DNA from: Saccharospirillum sp.
Lineage (GTDB): Bacteria; Pseudomonadota; Gammaproteobacteria; Pseudomonadales; Natronospirillaceae
Direction of reading: 5' to 3'
Length of the DNA: 64,000 nucleotides
Assembly (NCBI GenBank): GCA_022565595.1
Contig: JAIUML010000004.1
Coordinates: forward strand, 186,001 to 250,000
Program-made: the position numbers and the translations under genes
Shown here: piece by piece, positions 6,325 through 50,297 of the stretch
Numbering within the stretch: the stretch's first letter is position 1
Layout of the letters: each line of letters opens with the position of its first letter
The notes under the pieces: model-generated
What the model saw: the letters and a program-made list of their open reading frames with translations, nothing else
Told to the model about the DNA's origin: nothing
Database searches by the model: none

Positions 6325-6416
6325 GGAGAGTTGGCAGAGTCCGGTTGAATGCACCTGACTTGAAATCAGACGTAGGCGAAAGCCTACCGGGGGTTCGAAT
6401 CCCTCACTCTCCGCCA
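6325..6416 (+). tRNA. tRNA-Ser(TGA)
   Basis: A 92-base gene with encoded CCA. The acceptor arms GGAGAGT / ACTCTCC pair fully; the anticodon loop CTTGAAA gives TGA at 6361-6363; the long variable arm GTAGGC-GAAA-GCCTAC and GGTTCGAATCC T-arm are class II features. One odd point is a C-A mismatch at the top of the anticodon stem (6354/6370). Its last 60 bases coincide with attL, so the 3' half is inferred to be supplied by the phage. Confidence 0.95.
6357..6416 (+). repeat. attL: attL core (3' part of tRNA-Ser)
   Basis: 60 bases identical to 49560-49619, running from the anticodon stem through the CCA. The bases just outside differ at both ends (T vs A on the left, T vs A on the right), which fixes the repeat limits. 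Crossing-over here keeps the tRNA whole. Confidence 0.9.
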
Positions 6417-6551: not shown

Positions 6552-7334
6552 ATGAAACTAAATCGAACCATACTGTACGAATATATAGACCCTATGGGAT
6601 GGAAGTCCTCCGGTCTTTCAAAGTTCAACACGCTGGTCTGCATACTAATTTTCGCAGCTTTCATATTGACCATACTTGAAACAGAGCCAGCAGTACGCAA
6701 TAGCTTCGGTCAGTGGTTAGTGGTTTTACAGTCAATATTTTTCTCTTTCTTTCTTATTGAGTACCTTCTTCGAGTTTACGTAGCGACAGAAAACCCAAAG
6801 TATGCAGTACCATACGGCACGCTTCACTATATGAAGTCTCCCTGGGCTCTTTTGGACCTAGTCGCTTTACTTTCTTTTCTAATTCCAGCCACATGGGCAT
6901 CTACCGCCTTTTTTGCGAGACTGGCGCGACTAATCAAAATTATGAGACTAGCTCGTATTGGTCGGTTTTCTCAGGCATGGACATCCCTATTTGAAGCAAT
7001 TTCAAAGCGCGGATCAGAGATCGCGATTAGCATTACAATTGCATTCATTTTAATCATCATATCCAGCACGGTACTTTATCTAGCTGAAGGAGCAGCCCAA
7101 CCCGAGGAGTTTGGCAGCATTCCTCGGGCATTTTGGTGGAGTGTTGCGACACTTACCACTGTTGGCTATGGTGACGTAACACCAGTGACAGGATTGGGCA
7201 AGGTGTTTGCAGGAATTACAGCCATTCTCGGAGTCGGACTAGTTGCAATGCCAACAGGAATTCTTGCCGCAGCATTTAGCGAAGCATTCCAGAAAGATAA
7301 GAATAATCTGAGCACAACTAAAGAGGAAAGTTAA
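6552..7334 (+). CDS. Voltage-gated-type potassium channel
   Basis: 260 residues with a six-helix Kv-like plan. S4 (about 122-139) carries regularly spaced basic residues (R-L-A-R-L-I-K-I-M-R-L-A-R). The pore loop has the potassium filter TTVGYGD at 202-208, and S6 follows. No RCK/TrkA cytosolic domain is present. It would pass K+ through the inner membrane. The next gene starts two bases after its stop, so the two are probably one operon. Base composition is AT-richer than the phage core, which marks it as cargo acquired separately. Confidence 0.85.
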   Translation: MKLNRTILYEYIDPMGWKSSGLSKFNTLVCILIFAAFILTILETEPAVRNSFGQWLVVLQSIFFSFFLIEYLLRVYVATENPKYAVPYGTLHYMKSPWALLDLVALLSFLIPATWASTAFFARLARLIKIMRLARIGRFSQAWTSLFEAISKRGSEIAISITIAFILIIISSTVLYLAEGAAQPEEFGSIPRAFWWSVATLTTVGYGDVTPVTGLGKVFAGITAILGVGLVAMPTGILAAAFSEAFQKDKNNLSTTKEES

Positions 7335-7336
7335 TT

Positions 7337-8503
7337 GTGGCGTTTAGATTTCAAAGACGAATAAAAATAGCACCAGGAATAAGAGTTAACATCAGTAAAA
7401 GTGGCGCGGGACTGTCAGTCGGCCCCAGAGGCGCCACTGCTTCAATTGGAAAGCGTGGGCTATACGGAAACTTAGGTATCCCAGGCACCGGTCTTAGCTA
7501 TAGAAAGAAAATAGACCAACATCAGCAGACATCTAGAAATTCTAACGTAAATGCACCAAATTCTACCTTAATGAAAGTGGATGATGATGGCGCTTTATCA
7601 TTCTTGTATGAGAATGGAGAAGACCTGCCAAGTTCAATAGCTAACAAAATAAAGAGAACAAATGGAGATGAGATCCGTAGCTATTTAAATAGCGTTCGCG
7701 ACAAACGTAACGAGCTACTGAGTACTATTACTGAGTTACATAAAGACATACCAGCTCCAACCAACAATCCAGAGTACATTCCAAAGAAATTTGAAGAGCC
7801 CAAGCCTTCGAATGGATTCTGGTCGGGAGTACTGGGATTTTTCGTGCCGAGCATAAAAAGACAATTCCACGAAAAACTCAAATCTTGGTATCGGAGAAAA
7901 TCTGAGTTTGAAAGTGCTGAAAATGACAGAAAAGAGCTAGAGGAGAAACAGGTATTCGAATCAATTGATGCTATGGATAAAGTTTTGTCCTTCTACCTTA
8001 GCGAAATTGAATGGCCCAGTGTCCCTGAGATCGATTATGACTTAGGCAGCAACAACAAAACTTTGGCTCTGGATATTTTCCTGCCTAGTGAAGAAGGCCT
8101 ACCCAACAAAGAATGGTCCGTACCAGGTAATGCATATCGGTTGACCTCAAGAAAAATATCAGAATCTAAAAGACGTCAAATCTATCGTGATTATGCTCAC
8201 GCTATTTTGCTTCGCATTATTGGTGAAGTTTATGCTCGATTACCAACTGTCGATCACATAATGATATCCGCTTATCGGACTGGAGTGGACACAGCTACAG
8301 CACAAGACACAGATGAGTACATATTGAGCGCGATTGTCAAACGTTCCACATGGCAAAAAATTGACTTTAATCGAATAGCCAGAATCGACCCAGTCGAAGC
8401 AATGAAAGAGCATGATCTGATCCGTAATATGACTAAAACAGGGATTTTCAAGCCAATCAAACCATACACTACAGATGACTTAGAACGAATTTCGAACGAT
8501 TAA
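7337..8503 (+). CDS. DUF4236 domain protein
   Basis: 388 residues from a GTG start that directly follows the channel gene; GAGGAAAG lies upstream. Residues 1-58 form a DUF4236 domain (FRFQRRIKIAPGIRVNISKSG, then SVGPRGA and GIPGTGLSY), a short glycine-rich beta domain of unknown role, usually N-terminal to other modules. The rest is mostly helical with a charged stretch at about 190-220 and a C-terminal alpha/beta part (VYARLPTVDHIMISAYR). I recognise no catalytic motif there. Tight coupling to the channel suggests a joint function. Confidence 0.7.
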   Translation: MAFRFQRRIKIAPGIRVNISKSGAGLSVGPRGATASIGKRGLYGNLGIPGTGLSYRKKIDQHQQTSRNSNVNAPNSTLMKVDDDGALSFLYENGEDLPSSIANKIKRTNGDEIRSYLNSVRDKRNELLSTITELHKDIPAPTNNPEYIPKKFEEPKPSNGFWSGVLGFFVPSIKRQFHEKLKSWYRRKSEFESAENDRKELEEKQVFESIDAMDKVLSFYLSEIEWPSVPEIDYDLGSNNKTLALDIFLPSEEGLPNKEWSVPGNAYRLTSRKISESKRRQIYRDYAHAILLRIIGEVYARLPTVDHIMISAYRTGVDTATAQDTDEYILSAIVKRSTWQKIDFNRIARIDPVEAMKEHDLIRNMTKTGIFKPIKPYTTDDLERISND

Positions 8504-8506
8504 AAG

Positions 8507-9520
8507 TTATTTAATATTTTCTTCAGGGTCAAGAGTTGGCGTGACCTTCACCTTCCGGTCATACACCGCAACTTGGCTGGCAGTTTTGTGTCCACTGAAG
8601 TTCTGCTTGTCTGACAACGAGCCTTCAAAATCACTGATACCTTTAGCTTTCAAGTCGTGCAGGGTGAAATGCTCGATGCTGGCCACGTCTTCGAGAGCTT
8701 TCGCCCATGCATTATTCCAATGGACTCGCAAGCCACTTGCCGTGAGCTTTGTCCCCGTCCGTGTGTGGATAACGAACATGGTAGGTTGGCTTGAGGGCGT
8801 CGACAGACCGAGATTCACTGCATTGCGAAGGCGATTGGTCCAGGACTTGATCTGACGGACCCCACTCTTACCCTGCCGGATGTACACACCCTCTGGTTTC
8901 AATGCCTGGCGCTGCAGGCTGAGCACGTCGCTTTTGCGAGCAGCACAGAGGTAGCTGATTTCCATGAATGCCTTGAGTACATCAGAAGCGTGCTCATAGA
9001 TCAGCTTATACTCCCAGTCTTCAATGTACCGCTCTCGAGCTTTCTCGGTGAATGCTCGCACACCTTTGACCGGGTTGCTTTTAACCAGGCCACGCTCATA
9101 GCCCCAACTGAAGATGGCCGAGAGTACGGCTTTATGGCGGTTAGCCGACACCTTGGCCTTTTGACCCTTGATGTCCATGAACTGGCGAATGTGAATGGGT
9201 TCAATATCATCCACATGCACCCTTCCGAATACTTTTTTCAGAGTAGCAGTCATGGAAAAGTAATCTTTTTGGGTGCGAGCCTGACGATCTTTGAACTGGT
9301 CGCTCTCCAGAAAATTGTCGGCCAGGGCAGCAAAAGTGGTGCTGTCGTGCTCCTGAACGTATTCCTCATAAGCACGGAGCACAGCACTCTTGCTGGCATC
9401 CGGTGGAGCGATGCGAACCTTGCCGCCGGCTTTGGGGTGAAAATGGTACCCATAGTCAGTGAGGTACACTCGGCTGGGCAGCCATTCCATACGTGGGTCT
9501 TTTCTTTTCCGTGGGCTCAT
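8507..9520 (-). CDS. int: Phage tyrosine integrase (attL-proximal)
   Basis: 337 residues. An N-terminal arm-binding region and a SAM-like core-binding domain (about 58-150) precede the catalytic domain, with Arg195 (AARKSD), Lys218, His288, His311 (SGHKT) and nucleophile Tyr320. The second catalytic Arg of HxxR is Lys291 (HDLK), seen in a subgroup of phage integrases. It is closest to attL and the best candidate for the enzyme that made the 60-bp tRNA junctions. It ends the leftward early operon and overlaps the DUF4224 gene by four bases. Confidence 0.93.
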   Translation of the reverse strand: MSPRKRKDPRMEWLPSRVYLTDYGYHFHPKAGGKVRIAPPDASKSAVLRAYEEYVQEHDSTTFAALADNFLESDQFKDRQARTQKDYFSMTATLKKVFGRVHVDDIEPIHIRQFMDIKGQKAKVSANRHKAVLSAIFSWGYERGLVKSNPVKGVRAFTEKARERYIEDWEYKLIYEHASDVLKAFMEISYLCAARKSDVLSLQRQALKPEGVYIRQGKSGVRQIKSWTNRLRNAVNLGLSTPSSQPTMFVIHTRTGTKLTASGLRVHWNNAWAKALEDVASIEHFTLHDLKAKGISDFEGSLSDKQNFSGHKTASQVAVYDRKVKVTPTLDPEENIK

Positions 9521-17761: not shown

Positions 17762-18097
17762 ATGAGCAAACCGAATATCAGAACCTGCAGTCACTGCAGC
17801 GGTAGCGGAAAAATCGAAGGCACATTCGCCCACCGACCGTGGGATTGCCTCCAGTGCGACGGTTTCGGTGTGGTCGACGCGGAAACCGGCTTCGGATTAA
17901 GCAGGTCAGAGCAGGTTGCCTACCTGCAGGATCAATTGGCCAAGCGCGATAGCACCATCACTCGTCTGCAGGCGGAGGTCGCCCGGCTGGAGCCCTATCG
18001 CACCCAGGCAGCAGCCAAAGAACTGGCTGAGCAGGTCTACCCCAAACACATCACAGAAGCCCGGCGTCGCTCTGGGCAAGGCGGATACGGAGATTGA
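17762..18097 (+). CDS. Small zinc-finger protein with DnaJ-like CxxCxGxG motifs
   Basis: 111 residues. CSHCSGSGKI and CLQCDGFGVV form two CxxCxGxG half-sites that would bind zinc as in DnaJ; a coiled helix (YLQDQLAKRDSTITRLQAEVARLE) follows. Such proteins are frequent beside phage replication genes, but a specific function is not known. It starts three bases after the replication gene. Confidence 0.75.
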   Translation: MSKPNIRTCSHCSGSGKIEGTFAHRPWDCLQCDGFGVVDAETGFGLSRSEQVAYLQDQLAKRDSTITRLQAEVARLEPYRTQAAAKELAEQVYPKHITEARRRSGQGGYGD

Positions 18098-18102
18098 ACT
18101 GG

Positions 18103-18288
18103 ATGCACATCATTTTAAGCCTGGTACTGGCTGCATTCATCGTGGGTTGTCTGTCACTCGCCAGCAACGAAGAACGCGCCAACCAAAACATGCTCGGTCA
18201 TCGAGCGGGAAAGGTGCTGCAGATGCTGCCCGAAATCCTGCTGGCCATAGCCGTGGCCATTGGCTTTACGGCCGGGGCGATGCTATGA
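18103..18288 (+). CDS. Small two-helix membrane protein
   Basis: 61 residues from ATG 18103; a TTG at 18094 overlapping the previous stop is an alternative. Two hydrophobic helices (about 2-20 and 40-61) flank a polar loop. An LSLVLAAFIVGC-like start could be read as a lipobox, but a simple membrane protein fits better. It overlaps the second recombinase gene (ATGA). Confidence 0.5.
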   Translation: MHIILSLVLAAFIVGCLSLASNEERANQNMLGHRAGKVLQMLPEILLAIAVAIGFTAGAML

Positions 18289-19460
18289 GCACCCTGCGCA
18301 CCGCAATCACCGATGCTGCCATCAAGCGGCACGCGAATCATGGCGTGCGTCAGTTGCACGATCAGTCGATCGGTCACCTGTACTTGCGCTATCACCGTCA
18401 CCGCAAGTCTGGTAGCTGGTATTTGCTCACCAACCAGCACGGCCGCAAATGCTGGCGCAAGCTCGGCCGCTGGCCAGACATGCCCGCCGCTACTGTTCGC
18501 AAGGATGCACCGAGGCTGTTGGCGGATGCGTCCGGAACAATCGAAACCGAACAAACCCTGGGGCAGGTGCTGGCCTGGTATCTGGAGCGCACGCAGAAGG
18601 ATCGCAGTCTCTCGACAGAACGCCGAGCCGATATCGTCAGTGTTATTCGAACGCATCTGCTGTGTGCCACTGGCCTCACTGGATTACGCCCCAGTGAACT
18701 CACCCGCCCTACCCTCGATGCCGAGCTGCTCATTCCCTTGCAGCAAACCCTGAAGCCAGCCACCGTCGAAAAGGTTTACCGGGTACTCAATGCCTGCCTG
18801 AACAAGGCCGCCACTCTGGATGTGATTGGCACTAACCCACTCAAACAATTCAAGTTGAGCGAGTTCCTGGATAACCGCTCGGTACCGAAAGGCAGTGCGC
18901 TCAAGCCCAGTGACGCGGCTGACCTGTTCACTGCAATCAGCCGGGCACCGCATCAGGCATCGATGCTGGCCACCCTGATGGCCATGCATGGTACTCGCAT
19001 CAACGAAACCCGTTTGGCTACATGGCGTCAGTTCGACTTCAAAGGCCGCTGGTGGCACATACCGGCGATGAACACCAAGACTCGCAAGGCACACCGCCTG
19101 CCCCTGACCGATCAGGCTCTGGCAGTACTGACGCGGTATCGGGACTCAACAGACACGGATTACCTCTTTGCCGGGGAAGACGGGCCCATCTCACGCAGGC
19201 AAGCCTACCGGCTCATCCGATCCATCAGCAAAGGTGACTGGAAAAGCCACGACCTGCGCAAGTTCGCCCGCACCACCTGGGCCGACATGGGCACCGATTA
19301 CATGATCTCTGAACTGCTGATCAACCACACACCCAGCAAGATGGACCGAACCTACATCCACACCTTTGCCGACGAACGGACACGGCAGGCACTGGAAGAC
19401 TACCACCACTGGCTGGAATCCCAGTCGGTCGACTTTGCTCGGATGGTAGACAGATGGTAG
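18285..19460 (+). CDS. Second tyrosine recombinase
   Basis: 391 residues from the ATG at 18285, which overlaps the previous stop; the longer open frame upstream is spurious. The catalytic set is complete: Arg238 (GTRINET), Lys in the beta-hairpin (NTKTRK, 265 or 268), His322 and Arg325 (HDLRKFART), His348 and Tyr357 (RTYIHT). The N-terminus resembles the DUF4102-like arm domain of P4-type integrases only loosely. It lies in the rightward early operon, far from both att sites, so it may act in lytic growth or be left from another phage. Confidence 0.9.
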   Translation: MSTLRTAITDAAIKRHANHGVRQLHDQSIGHLYLRYHRHRKSGSWYLLTNQHGRKCWRKLGRWPDMPAATVRKDAPRLLADASGTIETEQTLGQVLAWYLERTQKDRSLSTERRADIVSVIRTHLLCATGLTGLRPSELTRPTLDAELLIPLQQTLKPATVEKVYRVLNACLNKAATLDVIGTNPLKQFKLSEFLDNRSVPKGSALKPSDAADLFTAISRAPHQASMLATLMAMHGTRINETRLATWRQFDFKGRWWHIPAMNTKTRKAHRLPLTDQALAVLTRYRDSTDTDYLFAGEDGPISRRQAYRLIRSISKGDWKSHDLRKFARTTWADMGTDYMISELLINHTPSKMDRTYIHTFADERTRQALEDYHHWLESQSVDFARMVDRW

Positions 19461-23495: not shown

Positions 23496-24542
23496 CTATG
23501 GGCAGTTTTCAGCTAGACGAAACCCGCTTTCAAGCGCCTCTGACAAAGTGCTGAAAGGAACCCTATTCCTTTCAGCGACTGCATCATAGCTGGGACAATC
23601 AGGCCTATGCGCAATCATCGAATTACGATTTCCGATTATCGGGCCTTCTCGTAAGACTCTTTTCTCACCTGGTGAGGGTTGCGGTGTAATAGAGACTTCC
23701 TCTATTAAGTGTAAGCCTGCACCATGTGTCAAAACGAAAACTGGGGCGTGATCCGACACATAAGCCCGGGCTTGCTCATGCGTCCAACCAAGAAGCTCTG
23801 GAAAGCGCAATATACCTGATGACGAAACCCCTATAGTATTGGATTCATCAATAAAGACATTGTCATACAAATTCGCATAGCGGCCATCAATTGACGAGAG
23901 CGTTGTTGCGCCCTGGGTTATTAGTGGTATCGCACCTCGATCAAGGAGTGGTTGCCAGGCAGCGTGGGTTGGTGGAAGGTTGAAGTCCCCCAAGAGTAGT
24001 ACTGGCGTATCATCATAGGTTTCATGAAGCCATGACCAGTATTCCGCCAGTTCATTGATCTCTGGTGTTCGATCACCCACTGATCGCCCGAAAACAATGT
24101 GGACTGTTGCTGCGACAAATGGTTCACCAGTTGTCAAATCAATAAACCGTGCAGAGTATGGTTCGCGTGCGTACAAGTCATATCGATCAAGGTAAACAAC
24201 AGCACCGGATTCGTAGGCAACAGACTCTTCACGCCAGATGAAGGCGTACTTCTCCTTGTAGCTCCCTCGCCCAATCGGGTGAGAGTACATCATATCCCAG
24301 CTACTCCTTGTAGCTTGCTCTAAAGCATTTTTCAGTAACTCTAACCCCTGGACTGTCATTGCTTCTTGAATGGCTATAAAGTCGAAATGAGACCCGACGA
24401 TACCCAAGCTTTCGTAATTCTTGTTTGAGCCATGGCCTAGACGCTCTATGTTCCAACTTGCAATAGAAAGCCCTTGAGCCCAAACAAAATTACTATATAT
24501 AAAGAAATAAAAGACAAAAAGAAACTGCATGATTATCTTCAT
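23496..24542 (-). CDS. Secreted endonuclease/exonuclease/phosphatase-family nuclease
   Basis: 348 residues. A signal peptide (about 1-22, ending VWA) precedes a DNase I-like domain: SWNIERLG at 29-36, catalytic Glu in AIQEAM (Glu60), LLLGDFNLPP and SDHAPVFVL near the end of the domain. The last 45 residues form an Ada/thermonuclease-like tail (IGNRNSMIAHRPDCPSYDAV, then NRVPF and ENCP) with two cysteines and a histidine that could bind metal. A periplasmic or extracellular nuclease is expected. It is transcribed against the late genes. Confidence 0.82.
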   Translation of the reverse strand: MKIIMQFLFVFYFFIYSNFVWAQGLSIASWNIERLGHGSNKNYESLGIVGSHFDFIAIQEAMTVQGLELLKNALEQATRSSWDMMYSHPIGRGSYKEKYAFIWREESVAYESGAVVYLDRYDLYAREPYSARFIDLTTGEPFVAATVHIVFGRSVGDRTPEINELAEYWSWLHETYDDTPVLLLGDFNLPPTHAAWQPLLDRGAIPLITQGATTLSSIDGRYANLYDNVFIDESNTIGVSSSGILRFPELLGWTHEQARAYVSDHAPVFVLTHGAGLHLIEEVSITPQPSPGEKRVLREGPIIGNRNSMIAHRPDCPSYDAVAERNRVPFSTLSEALESGFRLAENCP

Positions 24543-24670
24543 TTTTCACCTAAGGAATTTATTTTTTATCAATAAAATAAATTGCATTAAACCTATACCC
24601 AACCTCCGAGTAACTTCATTTAAATATGATAAACCAGGGGTTACGATATAAAGTCATATGTTGCCTCTAA

Positions 24671-25543
24671 CTAGCTTTCTATATCAACTTGTATATAGTT
24701 GAAAATTCTTAAAACTATGCCATGAAGCCTCACCATAACATCATAATAATCATCAGGGATCTTTCCATCATGTAATAGCTTTGATCTAACGCTATAAGCC
24801 TTTTTGTCCACGAATGTGATATCTTCTTCAGAAAGCTTACACTTTCTGCACAATCGAATTATCGACCTCCTGACCGACTCTCTCTTTAGATCAACTATTC
24901 GACCTTTAAGCGACTCAAATACTTCTTTATCTTCTATTGGATTACTATCAAAAACTCGCAATAGTTCTTCTAGGTTTTTTCCTATTGGCTCGCCATAAAT
25001 TTCTTGTTCAGCCAAACATTCAACTGCACTCATTAAAAGTATTAATGTCGAAATAGATGCTCCGGACACTTTAGCTAGCGCAAATAGTTTCATTGACTTA
25101 CACAATGAATCCCTATTGATATCTAGCGTCCGACTGTAATTGTTAACTGACTCAAAAAACGGTTTTAGACTATCTCCCGCAGCTAATAAGGCTCTGGCTT
25201 TAGGACCTATGTCACTACGTTTTGAAAGTTCAACAAAAGTATCATTTGACCTAAAAGAGAAATCCTTACTAGTCAAAAATTTAAATAGATGATAATGAAA
25301 TTGACTAAGTATTTCTTCTGCATCATTCTTATTTTCAAGAGGCCATATTTCAACTTTCAAATCTACAATGTGACTTTTTCTTACTGGACTGTCATAATTT
25401 AAGTGCGTTATTTTTAATTCTTTACCAAGAAACTTTAACAGCCTCACATTTCCAGACTTAAAATCTTTAAAATATAATCCTCTTGCAAATTCAATTTCAC
25501 TTATTGCTTTCCACATAAAGTCTAATCCGTAAAAAATATTCAT
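24671..25543 (-). CDS. HEPN-motif protein, possible RNase effector
   Basis: 290 residues. The C-terminal helical part holds R-S-K-L-L-H (Arg253, His258), the R-x4-H catalytic motif of HEPN RNases, preceded by a helix with VECLAE typical of Apea-like HEPN domains (SALVECL-type). The N-terminal 150 residues are not recognised. HEPN proteins are common in anti-phage and toxin-antitoxin systems and cut RNA. It is strongly AT-rich and sits alone in the cargo block, leftward. The ATG at 25543 follows AGG. Confidence 0.6.
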   Translation of the reverse strand: MNIFYGLDFMWKAISEIEFARGLYFKDFKSGNVRLLKFLGKELKITHLNYDSPVRKSHIVDLKVEIWPLENKNDAEEILSQFHYHLFKFLTSKDFSFRSNDTFVELSKRSDIGPKARALLAAGDSLKPFFESVNNYSRTLDINRDSLCKSMKLFALAKVSGASISTLILLMSAVECLAEQEIYGEPIGKNLEELLRVFDSNPIEDKEVFESLKGRIVDLKRESVRRSIIRLCRKCKLSEEDITFVDKKAYSVRSKLLHDGKIPDDYYDVMVRLHGIVLRIFNYIQVDIES

Positions 25544-25546
25544 CAA

Positions 25547-25864
25547 TACCTACATACTAGCAGTAATTAAACTAAGATGCATAAATTTAATTGGTTAACT
25601 TAACAGACATCTAATCTAATTGAGATGTAATGCTTTAACTCCTTAAAAAGAGGTATATATTCTGTCAAAAAAACATCTCATCATCCGTTTTGATTCAATG
25701 ATAGTTAAAAATTATATAGGGTAATATCAACAAGTGCAGTCTTTCCAATAGTTACTTAGTTTATAAGATTAAAATAGTAGAAAATTAAGTCGAGTAGTAA
25801 TATGGTTCCGAAGTCGGCAATGGCAATTGCATAATGGAATGCTCTAAGTAATCGAGGAATTGAT
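25547..25864. other. AT-rich gap between cargo genes
   Basis: 318 bases, very AT-rich, without a supported gene. An inverted repeat ACATCT...AGATGT lies near 25606-25627. It probably holds the promoter of the HEPN gene. Confidence 0.45.
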
Positions 25865-26320
25865 CTATATAGATTCCAATACATTCCTAATCTTGCCTAA
25901 TGCTATCGATGCACGCTCTATTCTTACCTGATACTTTCTTGGCTTACTAATGCCTGAGTAATCATGAATTGTTGCGGGAGTATTCGTAAATTGCTTCTTT
26001 ATTTCTGTATGCGCTTCAATAATCAATGAATAATTATCATCTTGTATATTCAATTCTGAAAGTAGCGACCTAGCATTCTTTAACCGTTGTATCATTCTTG
26101 TTTGATCTGATTGGTTGCTTGAATGTGCTTCATCTACCCAGAAAAGAATACCTATATCCATAGTCTCCTCGTATAGATTTAGCACCTTCCGAACACACTC
26201 TCGTTTACGATTTAAAAAATAGAAATGGTTTTGAATACAGTAATTAACAAACCATCCGAAAATTACAACGAGAATAGTGATGACAGGAAAATAAATAACT
26301 AAGCTTTCACTCTCTAGCAT
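25865..26320 (-). CDS. Membrane-anchored helical protein of the STAS-HATPase operon
   Basis: 151 residues. One membrane helix (about 8-30, LVIYFPVITILVVIFGWFV) is followed by a helical cytoplasmic domain (LNRKRECVRKVLNLYEETMD, ..., RMIQRLKNARSLLSEL). It overlaps the DUF4325 gene by 14 bases, so it is the third gene of a coupled operon. As the only membrane component it may be the sensor or effector. No family recognised. Confidence 0.6.
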   Translation of the reverse strand: MLESESLVIYFPVITILVVIFGWFVNYCIQNHFYFLNRKRECVRKVLNLYEETMDIGILFWVDEAHSSNQSDQTRMIQRLKNARSLLSELNIQDDNYSLIIEAHTEIKKQFTNTPATIHDYSGISKPRKYQVRIERASIALGKIRNVLESI

Positions 26321-26624
26321 TTTCTATATATTCCATTATTTCTTCAATCAACTCAGGCTGCTCATCAGAAACTAAAATTATCTTTTGCCTTAGATCAGCT
26401 AAAGAAAAACCTGCTTCTCTGATTAGCCCACCAAATGCCTCTTCTAAAAAAGATGAGCCAAAACCCATTGTCCCGTCCAAGTCTATAATTACCTTATCAT
26501 TCTCTTTTAAGAGTTTTAAGAGGACGGTTTCCCGGAATTCTTGACCTGAGTGCTTACCAAGATTACTGTATCTAGGCCCCGGGAATTTAGAGAACTCCTT
26601 GGCTATTGAGTATTTAATTGTCAT
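26307..26624 (-). CDS. STAS-like DUF4325 protein
   Basis: 105 residues from the ATG at 26624 (GGAG seven bases before). The pattern NLGKHSGQEFRE, KVIIDLDGTMGFGSSFLEEA, then GGLIREAG matches DUF4325, a STAS-like fold. STAS proteins are partners of HATPase switch kinases (SpoIIAA with SpoIIAB). It overlaps its HATPase neighbour by 11 bases, so the two are made together. Confidence 0.8.
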   Translation of the reverse strand: MTIKYSIAKEFSKFPGPRYSNLGKHSGQEFRETVLLKLLKENDKVIIDLDGTMGFGSSFLEEAFGGLIREAGFSLADLRQKIILVSDEQPELIEEIMEYIENARE

Positions 26625-27681
26625 CAACTTTCTCCAACGGTATTTGCCATTCAATTATAGTCCCATTTATAGAGTGTTTGCTACCACTAGTTGTTGGCAC
26701 ATAATTTTTACCAGACTTTGAAGTTCTCAGCCGGAAGGTTCCTTTATTACTATGAATTGCTAAGAGTGCATCCGGTGTACTTTGTATAAAAGCTCTAATT
26801 TCAGCTAGGCCGTAACCCCGATGAGATCTTTTCGTTTGTGTTTCTCCTTTTTTGGTTGCTGCATGTATAAGGTCTCCATCATCTGTATAATTGCCATTAA
26901 AAATCTCTAACGCTCTGCGCACCCAGCTCGTATTTTGTTCCAATGTAACTGTTTTTGGTATTCCTGCTCCTAAATCACACACTAACATCATAGCTTGTTT
27001 GTCCTTTATGCCACCAAATGCCCACCATCTACCTGTCTGAGATATTTTTTTACGGTTTAAATGTGCGTAAGCATGCTCTACTGAGTTGGCTATGGCTTCT
27101 TGTAGCCCACCAAAAAGACGTTTACGCTCATTGACCGCTACTTTACCAATTAACCTTTCGACAAGTGAACTCAATATTTCTCCATCAACCTCTGTGCCAG
27201 AAGTAAAATTCCAAAAACTTACATCACTGTATTCTTTCGTATCTTTGATTTTTTTTCCAAGTATTTCCGTAAAACCTGTTTGATTGAAGATGCTAATCAT
27301 TTTCTCGTCTTTTGGCATCTTGACTTTCGGAGGTTTCCCTGCTTTTCTTCTTAACCTATCGACGGTAGAAAGCAATAGCAGCATACCAGCCGCTGATATA
27401 TATTGGACACTACTAAAATCCAATGTCAGATTAGAATGTTTTGGATAATGCTTGTTAATGTTTTTTATAAAAGATTTAGTTTTATTTGAGTCATTCTTTC
27501 TATATATACATATTTTGGAGGGACTATGGATAGCAATCTCGTTTTCGCTTATTAAAACTCCATTAGTCGAAATCAGCATGTTGCGAACTTTTCTCTTGGA
27601 TTTTTCTAAAAGACCTCTGCGATATCGCTTTAGTGGAATTTTAGTATGCTTAATTAAATAGAATGTTGAGTCCTTTCTCAT
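26614..27681 (-). CDS. STAS-HATPase fusion protein
   Basis: 355 residues. Residues about 50-140 form a STAS domain (NLTLDFSSVQYISAAGMLLL). Residues about 185-345 form a GHKL ATPase: N-box EAIANSVEHAY (195-205), G1 DLGAGIP (236-242), G2 HRGYGL (287-292). There is no His-kinase dimerisation box, so it resembles anti-sigma/switch kinases. The STAS phospho-site that normally reads D-S-S-G is S-A-A-G here, so it cannot be phosphorylated there. The ATG has GAGG upstream. It is first in a three-gene AT-rich operon. Confidence 0.78.
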   Translation of the reverse strand: MRKDSTFYLIKHTKIPLKRYRRGLLEKSKRKVRNMLISTNGVLISENEIAIHSPSKICIYRKNDSNKTKSFIKNINKHYPKHSNLTLDFSSVQYISAAGMLLLLSTVDRLRRKAGKPPKVKMPKDEKMISIFNQTGFTEILGKKIKDTKEYSDVSFWNFTSGTEVDGEILSSLVERLIGKVAVNERKRLFGGLQEAIANSVEHAYAHLNRKKISQTGRWWAFGGIKDKQAMMLVCDLGAGIPKTVTLEQNTSWVRRALEIFNGNYTDDGDLIHAATKKGETQTKRSHRGYGLAEIRAFIQSTPDALLAIHSNKGTFRLRTSKSGKNYVPTTSGSKHSINGTIIEWQIPLEKVDDN

Positions 27682-45292: not shown

Positions 45293-47190
45293 CCTACGCC
45301 CCTGAGCAACCCACCGCCGTAGAACTGCATCTTTTCCAGAGCCCCTACGGCGTACCCCTGAACCCGCTGACCCTGCATCTGGAATTCCTCGACGGCGGCA
45401 CCTACTACCCACCGCTGCCGTGGGCACTGCCCGGACTGGTGACGAGCTACCGCGCCCCACTGGCCACCGGTACCGAAGCCCAGCAGGCGCGAGCCGCGCC
45501 CCAGCGCAACGCCCTGACCGCAGACGACCGAAGGGCAGGCCGCTGGGGCAATGCCGGCCACGCACCCAGCCAGCCAGCCCTGACGCACCGCGACGCCAAC
45601 CACCGGGACAGCGACCACCTGGCACCCTGGGACCGGGCCGGCGTGGCCCAGACCGACACCCGCGCCCGCTGGTGGCCAATAACCGAAGCCGCCGACCGGG
45701 CCAATGGCCACCCATGGGGCAGAGCCACTGAGAGCGACCGGCCGGACTACCTGAGCGACTGGAACCCCAAGCCCGCCCAGGCCGATGCCGCGCCCAGTAC
45801 CGGCTGGTTTACCGTCAACCTGTACGGCAGCCCCTACGACGACAGCGCCGCCCGCGCCGCCCTGCGCAACATTGACACCGGCACCAGCATCAGCCTGGCC
45901 GGCCCCAGTGGCCCCTTCACCCCGGCCGCCTGGGACGCCGTGCATTTCCGCTTTGGGTACCAGCCACCCAAGCGCCCCATAGTGCCCAACGACCAGACCA
46001 CCCGACTGACCGCCAGGCAGGCCACAAGGCGCGACAGCTGGCACCGGATACCCTGGGGCGAGGGCGACACCATCTGGCGCAACTGGAACCTGCCGTACCC
46101 GGTTGAAGAAAACGACGAACCCGAACCCCCCGAACCCGCAGAACCCCCCGAGAAACGGACGGTCTACCTGATCATGAACACACTAGAGATCACCGACGTG
46201 GACACCGGCACCCCGCTGGACATCCAGAACGTCACCATCAGCCTGGACATCGACAGCCTGAGCTGGCAATTCAGCGGCAACCTCTACGGCGCCGGCAGCC
46301 TGGCGCTGGTGCAGCCCGACGCCAACGGAATGAAGGACATCAGCGTCACGATAAACGGCCACAGCTGGGTGTTCGCCATCGAGCGCTACAGCAGCGACGA
46401 GCGATTCCCGACGAAAAAATGGCAGATCGGCGGTACCAGCCGCACCCAGTACATGGCCGCGCCCTTTGCCCCCACGCGCACCTACACCAACACCCTGGCG
46501 ACGACGGCCTCGCAAGCCGCCACCCAGGAACTGGACCTGACCGGTTTCAGCCTGACCTGGCTCACCAGCGGCGACGGCACCCTGCCAGACTGGCCCATCC
46601 CCGTCGGCGCCCTGAGCTACCGCGACAAAGCCCCCGCCCAGGTAGTGGCCGACATCGTAAAAGCCGCCGGCGGCGTAATGATCCCAGCCATGGCCACCGA
46701 CAGCTGGACCATCCAGCCCCGGTACCGGGTACCGCCCTGGCAGTGGGCAAGCGCCACCCCCGACGCCGAGGTCTACATCGGCATGATCCGCACCCGCAGC
46801 GCCCAGTATGAGCCCGCCCCCGAGTTCAACGCCTGCTACGTTTCAGGCATCAACCAGGGCGTGGCCGTGGATGTGCAACGGCAGGGCAGCGGCGGCACCG
46901 CCCCCATGCCCGACATCTACCACGACCTGATCACCGACCCCCAGCCGGCCATCAGCCGAGGCCGCCAGGAGCTGGCCGCCACCGGCAACAAGGTAGTCGA
47001 GACCCTGAGCCTGATCATCCCCGAGAACGGCGCCGCCCCCGGCATCATCACCCCAGGCCAGCTGGTGAAAATCAGCCACGACGACCCGGCCGACGACTAC
47101 CTGGGCTTGACCCTGAGCACCCGGATCACCGTGGCCGCCGCAGGAGGCGCCGCCATCTACCAGAGCATCACCATAGAGAGGGCCGCATAA
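45289..47190 (+). CDS. Large tail-tip protein, hub-like C-terminus
   Basis: 633 residues, GC-rich codons. An N-terminal module of about 280 residues is rich in Trp, Arg and Pro. The C-terminal 350 residues (LEITDVDTGTPLDIQNVTIS, SFAIERYSSDE-like strands, GQLVKISHDDPADDYLGLTL) resemble the gp27/gpD-like hub fold used by many tail tips. It overlaps the preceding gene by four bases. Role inferred. Confidence 0.6.
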   Translation: MTYAPEQPTAVELHLFQSPYGVPLNPLTLHLEFLDGGTYYPPLPWALPGLVTSYRAPLATGTEAQQARAAPQRNALTADDRRAGRWGNAGHAPSQPALTHRDANHRDSDHLAPWDRAGVAQTDTRARWWPITEAADRANGHPWGRATESDRPDYLSDWNPKPAQADAAPSTGWFTVNLYGSPYDDSAARAALRNIDTGTSISLAGPSGPFTPAAWDAVHFRFGYQPPKRPIVPNDQTTRLTARQATRRDSWHRIPWGEGDTIWRNWNLPYPVEENDEPEPPEPAEPPEKRTVYLIMNTLEITDVDTGTPLDIQNVTISLDIDSLSWQFSGNLYGAGSLALVQPDANGMKDISVTINGHSWVFAIERYSSDERFPTKKWQIGGTSRTQYMAAPFAPTRTYTNTLATTASQAATQELDLTGFSLTWLTSGDGTLPDWPIPVGALSYRDKAPAQVVADIVKAAGGVMIPAMATDSWTIQPRYRVPPWQWASATPDAEVYIGMIRTRSAQYEPAPEFNACYVSGINQGVAVDVQRQGSGGTAPMPDIYHDLITDPQPAISRGRQELAATGNKVVETLSLIIPENGAAPGIITPGQLVKISHDDPADDYLGLTLSTRITVAAAGGAAIYQSITIERAA

Positions 47191-47423
47191 TGAGCACCCG
47201 CAACCCCTGGCTGAAATTCCGCGCCCTGCTGCAGGGCGAAGGCCGCGCCGTGGTAACGGTACAAAGCAACAACGGCGACGGTACCAGCACCGTGCAGACC
47301 CGAGACGGGACCAGCTTCAAGGTCAAAGGCGAGAGCATCGAGGCAGGGAAAAAGGCGATGATAGAGGGGGGCGAGTTGAAGTATGAGGTGCCACCCTTGG
47401 CTTCCAGTACGATTGAATTGTAA
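47190..47423 (+). CDS. Small beta-barrel tail protein
   Basis: 77 residues: GRAVVTVQSNNGDGTSTVQT, then GTSFKVKGESIEAGKKAMIE looks like a small OB-type barrel such as the gp5-OB/spike adaptors. Its start overlaps the stop of the large gene before it. It is the last structural gene of the phage. Confidence 0.6.
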   Translation: MSTRNPWLKFRALLQGEGRAVVTVQSNNGDGTSTVQTRDGTSFKVKGESIEAGKKAMIEGGELKYEVPPLASSTIEL

Positions 47424-47705: not shown

Positions 47706-48575
47706 ATGAATTTGTTCGATGAGCATTTTTATAAACCTGTATCCCCCTTGGTAGAGGGCGCAGCTTACGAAGCATTATATGACCAACAAGGTCAATCTTT
47801 CAAAACTTTAGCAGAGCTCTTCGCGAAAACCCCTAACTCTCTACCCTCTGACCTTGTTGAACCCAAAATACTTGAAAAATACTATGAGCAATTAACTTCA
47901 ATATTCGCCAATAGTGATTTTGGAAGATTTGGAATTAGAGTTTTTCGAACAGCGGAATACCCTACACGTTTGCGTGACGCTAAATATCCAATTGAACTTG
48001 TTTATTACCAAGGTAATTGGGACCTCGCTCACACTAGGTCAGTAGCTATAGTTGGAAGCAGAAAACCTAGTAAAGAAGGGTTAACAAGAACAAAGAAGTT
48101 AACCAAATTACTGGTAGAACAGGGTTTTACAATAGTTTCTGGATTAGCATCTGGCGTTGACCAAATGGCCCACCTATCTGCAATCGAATTTGGAGGCGCT
48201 ACAATAGGCGTACTAGGAACTCCATTGTCTGAAAGCTATCCACGAGAGAATGCCGAACTTCAAAAGTATATAGGTAGGAACCACCTTTTAGTGAGCCAAG
48301 TCCCTTTTATTCGATATGGCAAAGAGCCATTTTCTAATAAAAGATTTTATTTTCCCGAAAGAAATAAATTAATGTCAGCTCTAACTGAGGCAACCATTAT
48401 AGTTGAGGCCGGAAACACCTCTGGAACTTTAGTTCAAGCTAGAGCTGCATTGGAACAAGGTAGAAAACTTTATATTTTAGAAAGTAACTTTAGCAATCCA
48501 AACTTGACATGGCCAGAAAAATTCTTAAAGAAGGGTGCGATAAAATTAAAGGATATTAATGATGTCAAACTTTGA
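47706..48575 (+). CDS. DprA/Smf-like protein of a DprA-PRTase defence pair
   Basis: 289 residues. The Rossmann-like DprA core is visible: AIVGSRKPSKEG near 114, IVSGLASGVDQMAHLSA near 141, GVLGTPLSESYP, and FPERNKLMSALTEATIIVEA near 216. DprA normally loads RecA on incoming DNA; this copy lacks the C-terminal winged helix and is not in its usual smf-topA context. The AT-rich pair with the next gene, beside attR, matches the DprA-phosphoribosyltransferase anti-phage pair reported from phage and satellite hotspots. Confidence 0.8.
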   Translation: MNLFDEHFYKPVSPLVEGAAYEALYDQQGQSFKTLAELFAKTPNSLPSDLVEPKILEKYYEQLTSIFANSDFGRFGIRVFRTAEYPTRLRDAKYPIELVYYQGNWDLAHTRSVAIVGSRKPSKEGLTRTKKLTKLLVEQGFTIVSGLASGVDQMAHLSAIEFGGATIGVLGTPLSESYPRENAELQKYIGRNHLLVSQVPFIRYGKEPFSNKRFYFPERNKLMSALTEATIIVEAGNTSGTLVQARAALEQGRKLYILESNFSNPNLTWPEKFLKKGAIKLKDINDVKL

Positions 48576-49257
48576 GTTAAAACTTGAAGCTATTGACGAT
48601 AGCACTCGCTCTGACCACTACCACCTAATACCTGGTGATAATTGCTTATATCTTTGTGAATACAGGTCTGGAGGAGGGTATAATTATCGCAGCAATCAGT
48701 TGATATATAATATAAAAAAGAGCGTATCTAAAAGATATGAATCTCATTACCAATACAAATTGCGTGACATGCGTATAGTTGCGTTGGCATTAGCCAAATC
48801 ACTGGCCGATAACCTTGATGACTGCTTATTCGTTCCAGCGCCTTCATCAAAAGCAAGGATAGATCCTGACTATGATGACCGACTATTAAAAATCCTAACG
48901 AGAACAAGCGAGTTACGTGTATCATCTTCACTGAAAGAGCTTAATATATGTGATTGTTTACATTCAAGAGAATCAAGAGATTCATTTCACCAAGGCAAAG
49001 AAAAAAGAAATATAGAAGATCTACGTGATAGTATTGCAATTGATATCGAAAAGATTCCCTCAACAATAAATCGAATCATAATTTTTGATGATATGATTAC
49101 AACAGGCTGTACCTTTAAGGCTTCACAACAAGTTCTAAACATCAATATTGGGATTGATATTGATAAAATTGATGGGTTATTTATAGCGAGACGAATACTT
49201 CCGCCCCCTGAAGATGACTTCGATGTAAGTGCGTTTTTTAGCTCAATACCTAATTAA
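48559..49257 (+). CDS. Phosphoribosyltransferase of the DprA-PRTase pair
   Basis: 232 residues. The PRPP-binding motif IIIFDDMITTGCTF is at about 174-187; LFVPAPSSKAR near 91 matches the PRTase-I fold, ComF-like. It shares 17 bases with the DprA-like gene, so the two are translated together. The substrate transferred to or from PRPP is unknown. Confidence 0.8.
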   Translation: MMSNFELKLEAIDDSTRSDHYHLIPGDNCLYLCEYRSGGGYNYRSNQLIYNIKKSVSKRYESHYQYKLRDMRIVALALAKSLADNLDDCLFVPAPSSKARIDPDYDDRLLKILTRTSELRVSSSLKELNICDCLHSRESRDSFHQGKEKRNIEDLRDSIAIDIEKIPSTINRIIIFDDMITTGCTFKASQQVLNINIGIDIDKIDGLFIARRILPPPEDDFDVSAFFSSIPN

Positions 49258-49559: not shown

Positions 49560-49619
49560 GACTTGAAATCAGACGTAGGCGAAAGCCTACCGGGGGTTCG
49601 AATCCCTCACTCTCCGCCA
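49560..49619 (+). repeat. attR: attR core (truncated tRNA-Ser 3' half)
   Basis: Identical over 60 bases to 6357-6416, including the variable-arm hairpin, T-arm and CCA. The 5' half of the tRNA is absent, so this is not a functional tRNA gene. It marks the right end of the prophage. Confidence 0.92.
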
Positions 49620-49627
49620 AATTAAAT

Positions 49628-49660
49628 AAAAAAGGGGACCCCAAAGGGGTCCCCTTTTTT
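49628..49660 (+). terminator. Original host terminator of tRNA-Ser
   Basis: AAAAAAGGGGACCCC pairs fully with GGGGTCCCCTTTTTT around AAA. It lies nine bases after the truncated tRNA end, and before integration would have stood right behind the intact gene. Confidence 0.85.
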
Positions 49661-49883
49661 ATTTAACCTTCGCAAAGCGAAGGCATTCGTTCGTGGCCCC
49701 CGCGGGTTCGACCAGATGCCCGGGGCATCTGGGGCCGCGCAAGCGCCCGGCGCAGCCGGGGCGGGCACATGGATGTGGCCGAGCCCATCCCGACCCAGCC
49801 AAATAATCAACCTCCCCCAAAGGGGTCCCTTTTTTATTGAACCTTCGCAAAGCGAAGGACGTCGTTCGTGGCCCCCGCAGGTT
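49639..49883. repeat. 70-bp direct repeat pair with hairpins
   Basis: 49639-49708 and 49814-49883 are about 90 percent alike: each has AAAGGGGTCCC with a T-run, then the hairpin CCTTCGC-AAA-GCGAAGG, then TCGTTCGTGGCCCCCGC. The second copy keeps the terminator's 3' arm but only part of the 5' arm. The 105 bases between are GC-rich with several palindromes (AGATGCCCCGGGCATCT type). This looks like a duplicated tRNA 3' flank, perhaps from earlier integration events. Confidence 0.75.
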
Positions 49884-50297
49884 ACAACCAACGTGCACAA
49901 CAAGGAACGGTCCGTACTAAAACGGAAAATCCGGTTACTATTCAGGAAAATCATCTTCACCGAGTTGGCCAGTGAGCGCCGGTAAAACCTCAAACAGGCA
50001 CTGCTGAGACAAAGACATTCGTCCAGTAAAGGCCCATTTAACGCGGCAAAGCGCGAATTCCATTTCATCAATTCCTCTTTTCAAGTACCCATTCTTAAAC
50101 ACTCATGTAGAGCTTTGAGTAAAATTCTGGCGCTAATATAAATTTTATCTATTTCATATAGAAATATCATTTATTTGATTGATTTAACAACCCTGCCTAA
50201 GATCGAATCACAACGAAACAACCAGGCCCTCCCGTTAAAACAAAGATACCAGGCGGGAACAGGTTTACTCAGACTTCAAAACGATAAGAGGCAAATC
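49884..50297. other. Leader region of the benzoylformate operon
   Basis: No gene is supported between the repeat and the dehydrogenase ATG at 50298; the minus-strand open frame is the repeat read backwards. The AT-rich part from 50090 holds the candidate LysR box and promoter listed next. The transcribed leader would be about 90 bases. Confidence 0.5.
50150..50203 (+). promoter_or_regulatory. Candidate LysR box and promoter
   Basis: TATTTC-ATATA-GAAATA (50150-50166) is a perfect T-N11-A-type palindrome. It is followed by TTGATT (50175-50180), a 17-base spacer and TAAGAT (50198-50203). The palindrome would sit around -60 to -44 from the start site, where LysR proteins usually bind. The matching regulator is inferred to be the LysR gene at 56384. 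Confidence 0.5.

What the first reader, a model, noticed from the sequence alone, without database searches (positions are those of the whole stretch)
47706..49257. DprA-like plus phosphoribosyltransferase pair beside attR
A lone DprA core overlaps a ComF-like PRTase by 17 bases, AT-rich, at the right end of an intact prophage. This matches, from memory, the DprA-PPRT anti-phage system found in phage/satellite hotspots. The mechanism of that pair is not established, and this is an additional host context.
Basis: partly seen in the sequence, partly recalled or inferred. Interest (0 to 1): 0.65.

Follow-up and report, generated by a model that had tools for sequence, protein, structure and literature searches.

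The report
Prophage-borne short-form ShosTA anti-phage pair
A prophage carries, at its right end, two overlapping genes of the known ShosTA kind of anti-phage toxin-antitoxin pair, in a slimmed-down form whose predicted toxin is only a ComF-like phosphoribosyltransferase; it is a new example of a known system, useful for asking which part of the toxin does the work.

Summary
Two + strand ORFs, 47706-48575 (289 aa, DprA family) and 48559-49257 (232 aa, phosphoribosyltransferase), overlap by 17 bases in an AT-rich stretch that ends 302 bases before a 60-base exact copy of the tRNA-Ser 3' end (attR). Best match: ShosTA (PADLOC ShosA 320 bits, ShosT 100 bits). Of 115 related loci found by the second gene alone, 110 have the DprA-like gene just upstream. 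The window has the short form (my term): no HAD domain, only the PRTase, nearest to ComF in profile and fold. ShosA keeps the ssDNA-binding arginine but has lysine at a RecA-contact position that is acidic in 19 of 19 housekeeping DprAs. In some relatives the toxin gene is broken beside an intact antitoxin gene, as expected for a toxin. Toxicity and defence of this copy are inferred, not shown. New member of a known kind.

The parts
47706..48575 (+). shosA-like gene, 289 aa, DprA-family predicted antitoxin
   Evidence: PADLOC ShosA PDLC03961 320.3 bits; Pfam DNA_processg_A 193.6 bits; fold match ShosA 8zva Z 28.5, tied with DprA 3maj and 3uqz 27.7; TIGR00732 dprA 173.0 bits, below its 191.15 cut-off that a DprA of 19 of 19 genomes passes
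48559..49257 (+). shosT-like gene, 232 aa, ComF-like phosphoribosyltransferase, predicted toxin, without HAD domain
   Evidence: PADLOC ShosT PDLC03962 99.7 bits; fold ComF 7p0h Z 13.2, ShosT 8zvc Z 11.6; hhalign to ComF E 8e-12
48559..48575 (+). 17-base overlap of the two genes (translational coupling inferred)
   Evidence: overlap in 97 of 107 related pairs, with longest-ORF starts
49087..49116 (+). PRPP loop DDMITTGCTF (ShosT residues 177-186)
   Evidence: translation; D177, D178, G183 invariant in 84 of 84 rows, T181 in 79
48060..48062 (+). codon of ShosA Arg119, equivalent of the ssDNA-binding Arg115 of S. pneumoniae DprA
   Evidence: Arg in 84 of 84 rows
49560..49619 (+). attR core, exact copy of tRNA-Ser 3' end
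6357..6416 (+). attL core inside tRNA-Ser(TGA) 6325-6416

Best explanation
A prophage-carried ShosTA toxin-antitoxin-type defence module of a short subtype. ShosT is a ComF-like phosphoribosyltransferase that, when free, uses PRPP to disturb the (purine) nucleotide pool and so damages or stops the cell; ShosA, a DprA-family ssDNA-binding protein encoded just ahead of it, holds it in check. A second phage that makes unusual replication or repair intermediates, or otherwise disturbs ShosA, frees the toxin, and the infected cell stops before the invader is done, which benefits the resident prophage. Shown here: gene pair, fold, kept PRPP loop, tight linkage in relatives, prophage location. Inferred from the long E. 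coli ShosTA: toxicity, neutralisation, trigger and nucleotide effect.
For: ShosA and ShosT profiles both match. All 84 rows of the ShosT alignment, window included, match PADLOC ShosT. Of 115 loci found by ShosT alone (66 in genome contigs, 49 in viral contigs; 109 distinct ShosT ORFs, as six pairs of loci are identical), 107 have ShosA within -150 to +400 bases upstream on the same strand, 97 of these overlapping; three more (L036, L084, L093) have it with a longer computed overlap, four begin at the end of the held stretch, one (L081) lacks it. PRPP loop D-D-x-x-T-x-G kept (84, 84, 79 and 84 of 84). Six loci (L035, L055, L077, L079, L080, L132) have a short ShosT ORF (118-142 aa, in five of them split in two) beside a full-length ShosA (297-314 aa), and no locus has a ShosA split in two beside an intact ShosT: the decay expected when the second gene is the toxin. 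The genome also has a separate DprA. In 38 of the 49 viral loci, those on contigs of 19.5 kb or more, 17 pairs lie within 10% of a contig end (7.6 expected), a usual place of lysogenic cargo.
Against: No experiment on this pair. The window ShosT lacks the HAD domain of the ShosT whose activity is reported, and aligns to its PRTase part weakly (hhalign 137 columns, 15% identity, probability 84%). Its PADLOC score (99.7) is below that of three short-form relatives (141-170). No + strand promoter-like site in front of the cassette (five sites in the region on both strands, 7.1 expected). L081 has an intact ShosT without a neighbouring ShosA, L116 an intact ShosT beside a 255-aa, low-scoring ShosA, and L083 and L084 have both genes short. 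The short ShosT ORFs may be sequencing errors in draft contigs. The contig-end count includes near-copies and contig ends that may be assembly breaks.
Confidence: 0.72

Rival explanations
1. The pair is a DNA-handling module of the phage (DprA-like RecA mediator plus ComF-like partner) that helps recombination or establishment of the phage genome, with no toxin and no defence role.
For: The two proteins are relatives of DprA and ComFC, which are reported to interact in two competent species (PMC9005727, passages); Arg119 for ssDNA binding is invariant.
Against: RecA-contact position Asp243 of S. pneumoniae DprA is acidic in 19 of 19 housekeeping DprAs but Lys254 here, Lys in 28 of 31 short-type ShosAs and acidic in 0 of 7 long-type; pairs also sit on plasmids and bacterial contigs; ShosT is broken beside intact ShosA in six loci.
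Confidence: 0.13
2. The pair is a defence system in which ShosA is not an antitoxin but a sensor that recruits and activates ShosT on phage DNA, neither gene being toxic alone.
For: Rousset et al. propose that DprA senses phage DNA and activates the PRTase effector (PMC9122126, section 10).
Against: The same passage cites DprA homologues as antitoxins in shosTA, and the review calls ShosA an antitoxin.
Confidence: 0.12
3. Degenerate, unexpressed remnant without function.
For: AT-rich; no promoter-like site in front.
Against: Both frames are open, the PRPP-loop and DNA-binding residues are kept, and both models have a mean pLDDT of 94.
Confidence: 0.03

Closest known systems
ShosTA, short form (PADLOC PDLC03961 ShosA + PDLC03962 ShosT; phages Mana and Riah, E. 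coli plasmid L014)
   Same: Both genes, order, similar lengths, PRPP loop; ShosA in one clan with them (support 100/99)
   Different: 28-37% ShosT and 48-56% ShosA identity to the 12 and 11 relatives aligned; another host and phage
ShosTA, long form of E. coli (PDB 8zva-8zvd, 9vzo; phage P2_4C9), probably the DprA + PRTase of Rousset et al.
   Same: DprA-family gene followed by PRTase gene; fold of both partners (Z 28.5 and 11.6)
   Different: Window ShosT has no HAD domain (232 against 424 aa); ShosA belongs to a separate clan
ComFC (competence, H. pylori 7p0h)
   Same: PRTase fold; best fold and best profile match of those compared; PRPP loop DDIITTGTTL against DDMITTGCTF
   Different: No 4-Cys zinc finger; the position of ComFC Thr165 is mostly His or Ser in the ShosT family, Thr here; DPDYDDR stretch where ComF has an RGFNQ-like motif (ComF motif recalled)
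DprA (competence/recombination)
   Same: Rossmann core, ssDNA-binding Arg
   Different: Below the dprA cut-off (173.0 against 191.15); no winged helix; a RecA-contact acid replaced by Lys
PsyrTA
   Same: DprA-like partner (PsyrA profile 109 bits)
   Different: PsyrT profile does not match the window ShosT at E 1, though 6 of 84 relatives match it weakly

Membership tests
ShosTA (PADLOC sense) | DprA-family ShosA | tested here: met
   PDLC03961 320.3 bits; one clan with 30 other short-type ShosAs, 100/99
ShosTA (PADLOC sense) | PRTase ShosT | tested here: met
   PDLC03962 99.7 bits, residues 10-218; PRTase fold
ShosTA (PADLOC sense) | the two genes adjacent on one strand | tested here: met
   17-base overlap; adjacent in 110 of 115 relatives
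ShosTA (PADLOC sense) | ShosT toxic alone, neutralised by ShosA | not testable with these tools
   only indirect: short ShosT beside full-length ShosA in 6 of 115 loci
ShosTA (PADLOC sense) | protects against phage | not testable with these tools
   needs phage plating
long-form ShosTA / DprA + PRTase of P2-like phages | HAD + PRTase toxin of about 410-430 aa | tested here: not met
   232 aa, no HAD match at E 1; PDLC03012 (427 positions) not matched by the window protein at E 1 nor in the own genome at E 0.001
DprA (competence) | score over the dprA cut-off | tested here: not met
   173.0 against 191.15; 172.3
ComFC | 4-Cys zinc finger before the PRTase domain | tested here: not met
   no Cys in residues 1-28; only C29 and C33 in the first 60 residues
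ComFC | PRPP-binding PRTase domain | tested here: met
   fold Z 13.2; loop; hhalign score 83.9 over 160 columns; the ComF rows used all lie below the TIGR00201 cut-off
PsyrTA | PsyrT toxin | tested here: not met
   no PsyrT match at E 1
Retron with PRTase effector | reverse transcriptase beside the PRTase | tested here: not met
   the only + strand ORFs of 60 aa or more between 47424 and 49560 are these two, and the one on the - strand has 67 aa; PRTase_III-A profile 21.8 bits only

The most novel reading that the evidence does not exclude
Short-form ShosTA is a competence pair turned into a weapon: a DprA relative that keeps ssDNA binding but has reversed a RecA-contact charge, and a ComF relative that lost its zinc finger, with the known DprA-ComFC contact reused as the antitoxin-toxin contact. 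The HAD domain of the long form would then be a later, catalytically dead addition, so the PRTase alone is the whole toxin; ssDNA on ShosA would be the trigger that releases it.
Probability: 0.25. Interest if true: 0.6.

Novelty: new member of a known kind. Interest (0 to 1): 0.34.

Why it matters
The short form is a natural deletion experiment: it has the PRTase but not the HAD domain of the ShosT with reported activity. If it is toxic, the PRTase is sufficient and the HAD domain (whose nucleophile Asp is replaced in 7 of 7 long ShosTs compared; motif recalled) is regulatory or structural. It also suggests a testable link between a defence pair and the two competence proteins DprA and ComFC.

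Tried and rejected
Search of viral contigs with the single ShosT sequence confirmed nothing; the alignment search did. A search with one long-form ShosT confirmed no viral relative, which says little, as only exact peptide patterns of one protein were scanned. PDB sequence search with ShosT gave nothing at E 1. In the Foldseek list itself (50 rows shown) ComF leads and no ShosT entry is among the rows; the ShosT entries appear in the second look. Paper searches for 'ShosTA' and 'ShosT/ShosA' alone returned mostly unrelated words.

Considered and dropped: retron (no reverse transcriptase ORF in the cassette), PsyrTA, competence genes, a separate HAD gene in the prophage (none among the 10 prophage proteins given to Pfam; not all prophage proteins were given).

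Limits of the comparisons. RecA contacts: Glu235 is acidic in only 8 of 19 housekeeping DprAs, so it is weak evidence; Asp243 discriminates (19 of 19 acidic); Glu265 was not covered by the fragment used; [quoted passage not shown] The equivalent of Lys202 changed between two alignments, so I make no claim on it. Tree: short, long and housekeeping clans are each one side of a branch, but long branches (3.2 and 3.4) meet and there is no outgroup, so whether short and long ShosA share an origin is not decided; 11 of 19 housekeeping loci entered the tree, because my first ORF pattern missed 8, the own genome's among them; one search used all 19 for the residue count, not for the tree. hhalign: 19 of 20 ComF-like loci entered; none of the 28 genomes' ComF matches passes the TIGR00201 cut-off. 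Scores: ComF 83.9 (160 columns), PyrE 56.8 (42), long ShosT 48.0 (137), Apt 41.6 (55); some Apt and PyrE ORFs were not trimmed at their N-terminus, and the E-values are for one pair, not a database. 'ShosTA' with 'ComF' in one paper: 0 papers in the open-licence PMC set; that is all that was searched for this.

Full report
What is there. Between the last phage ORF of a prophage (47190-47423) and its attR lies an AT-rich cassette with two overlapping + strand genes, 47706-48575 and 48559-49257. G+C is 0.37 against 0.55 for 6417-47423. The prophage is bounded by a 60-base exact repeat: the 3' end of tRNA-Ser(TGA) at 6357-6416 and its copy at 49560-49619. It encodes integrase, small and large terminase subunits, head protease, major head protein, portal, tape measure and tail proteins (20 proteins given to PHROGs) and an S24-type repressor.

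Identity. The first protein is a DprA-family protein that scores 320.3 bits with PADLOC ShosA PDLC03961 and 75.1 bits with the other ShosA profile, PDLC02997. The second scores 99.7 bits with ShosT PDLC03962. The own genome has one other DprA, on another contig. With the dprA model TIGR00732, 19 of 19 genomes have a DprA over the cut-off; the window gene (173.0) and a gene of G008 (153.8) are the only further matches and lie below it, and the G008 gene is also followed by a ShosT. ShosT is rare among relatives: 2 of 96 genomes, own included, and 4 of 369 of the class, own included.

Linkage. ShosT relatives were sought by ShosT alone in genome contigs (66 loci) and viral contigs (49 loci). The 115 loci hold 109 distinct ShosT ORFs; six pairs of loci are identical, some because one place is held in both collections. 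By a fixed rule 107 of 115 have ShosA immediately upstream on the same strand, 97 of 107 overlapping, with the longest-ORF start. Of the other eight, three have ShosA with a longer computed overlap (in L084 only a partial one), four begin at the end of the held stretch (L133 lies on the same contig as L126 and may be the rest of its gene), and one (L081) has no close ShosA. L106 appears to be phage Mana itself, which was in the query alignment. Ninety-two loci have both genes complete by my length rule; 83 remained after removal of near-copies and, with the window, make the 84 rows of A3 and A4. All 84 rows of A3 match PADLOC ShosT.

Two forms of ShosTA ('short' and 'long' are my terms). Phage P2_4C9 carries, beside its replication gene, a DprA-like gene and a 424-aa protein that match the PDB ShosA and ShosT along their whole length without a visible difference. 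This long ShosT has a HAD-like N-terminal part and a C-terminal PRTase part, both weak in Pfam. The window ShosT has only the second part. The model of the window ShosT (84 rows, mean pLDDT 94.0) aligns over residues 1-214 with residues 152-364 of ShosT 8zvc (Z 11.6, 181 residues, rmsd 4.0) and best with ComF 7p0h (Z 13.2, 166 residues, rmsd 3.2). In profile comparison ComF also leads: score 83.9 over 160 columns, against PyrE 56.8 (42), long ShosT 48.0 (137) and Apt 41.6 (55) (limits under Tried and rejected). The HAD motif I (DxD, recalled) has lost its first Asp in 7 of 7 long ShosTs, three of which are near-copies; so the HAD part is probably not catalytic and its absence here need not mean a lost activity. 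This is inference.

ShosA. The model (mean pLDDT 94.3) matches ShosA 8zva (Z 28.5) and, tied with it, DprA 3maj and 3uqz (27.7). Arg115 of S. pneumoniae DprA, involved in ssDNA binding (PMC4066776, passages), is Arg119 here and Arg in 84 of 84. Asp243, part of the acidic triad that contacts RecA, is acidic in 19 of 19 housekeeping DprAs, the own genome's included, but Lys254 here, Lys in 28 of 31 short-type ShosAs and acidic in none of 7 long-type. So ssDNA binding is probably kept and RecA loading by the known surface perhaps not. This sits uneasily with the review's remark that ShosA likely recruits factors that promote homologous recombination. In the tree the 31 short-type and 7 long-type ShosAs each form one clan (100/99), apart from 11 housekeeping DprAs; the order of branching is not settled.

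How it works. A review (PMC12593503, passages) says that ShosT acts as phosphoribosyltransferase and pyrophosphatase, disturbs purine metabolism, and causes DNA duplications, filamentation and death, that ShosA counteracts it, and that T7 Gp0.7 was identified as a trigger. [quoted passage not shown] The primary paper (Pu et al. 2025) is not held and was not seen. By homology I expect the window pair to work the same way with a minimal toxin. Genomic support for the toxin role: six loci have a short ShosT ORF (118-142 aa) beside a full-length ShosA, and none has a ShosA split in two beside an intact ShosT, although ShosA is the longer gene. Against it stand L081 (intact ShosT without adjacent ShosA), L116 (255-aa, low-scoring ShosA beside an intact ShosT), and L083 and L084 (both genes short). 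L073 (177 aa) and L058/L108 (190 aa) have somewhat short ShosTs that I did not count. Draft-assembly errors may explain some.

Place in phages. Of 49 viral loci, 38 on contigs of 19.5 kb or more were counted; in 17 the pair lies within 10% of a contig end (7.6 expected if uniform). Some of these are near-copies, and contig ends are not always prophage ends.

Right: DprA + PRTase, defence type, beside attR. To be changed: the name (ShosTA, short form) and the statement that the mechanism is unknown. DprA-PPRT and ShosTA are listed as separate systems in one paper (PMC11291487, passages); the cloned P2 system (PMC9122126, passages and section 10) is probably the long ShosTA, by inference.

Verdict. 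A new member of a known kind, in a form already covered by PADLOC profiles. Its value is as a test of whether the PRTase domain alone is the toxin, and of a possible descent from the competence pair DprA-ComFC, which interact in two competent species according to PMC9005727 (passages). The host organism was not identified.

Noticed in passing
L012, L013, L138, L139 (Rhizobiaceae plasmids): In all four the short ShosTA pair lies tail-to-tail with a long (HAD + PRTase) ShosT gene; in three the long-form DprA gene is annotated beside it, in L012 the long ShosT matches in two pieces over 78% and an IS66 transposase lies behind it. Two forms kept side by side suggest different triggers or targets.
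   Followed up: partly
L035, L055, L077, L079, L080, L132; also L018: ShosT frame short or broken beside a full-length ShosA.
   Followed up: partly
L081 (Chitinophaga silvisoli): Intact ShosT (211 aa) without an adjacent ShosA; a weak DprA-like ORF (98.9 bits) ends about 770 bases upstream.
   Followed up: no
window 23496-27681 (-): Block of minus-strand genes between large terminase and head genes: Exo_endo_phos protein, two unknowns, a DUF4325 STAS-like protein and a protein with STAS and weak HATPase matches; no PADLOC match.
   Followed up: partly
window 6552-8503 (+): Ion-channel-like protein (Ion_trans 97.9 bits) and a DUF4236 protein just inside attL; no PADLOC match.
   Followed up: partly
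window 8507-9520 (-) and 17916-19460 (+): Two integrase-family genes in one prophage.
   Followed up: no
window 49622-49900: Just outside attR, palindromic pieces that recur or look like terminators (CCTTCGCAAAGCGAAGG; a GGGGACCCC/GGGGTCCCC stretch followed by T).
   Followed up: no
window ShosT residue 185: The position equivalent to ComFC Thr165 is His in 54, Ser in 21 and Thr in 4 of 84 ShosT rows, which seems an unusual change for a PRPP loop.
   Followed up: no
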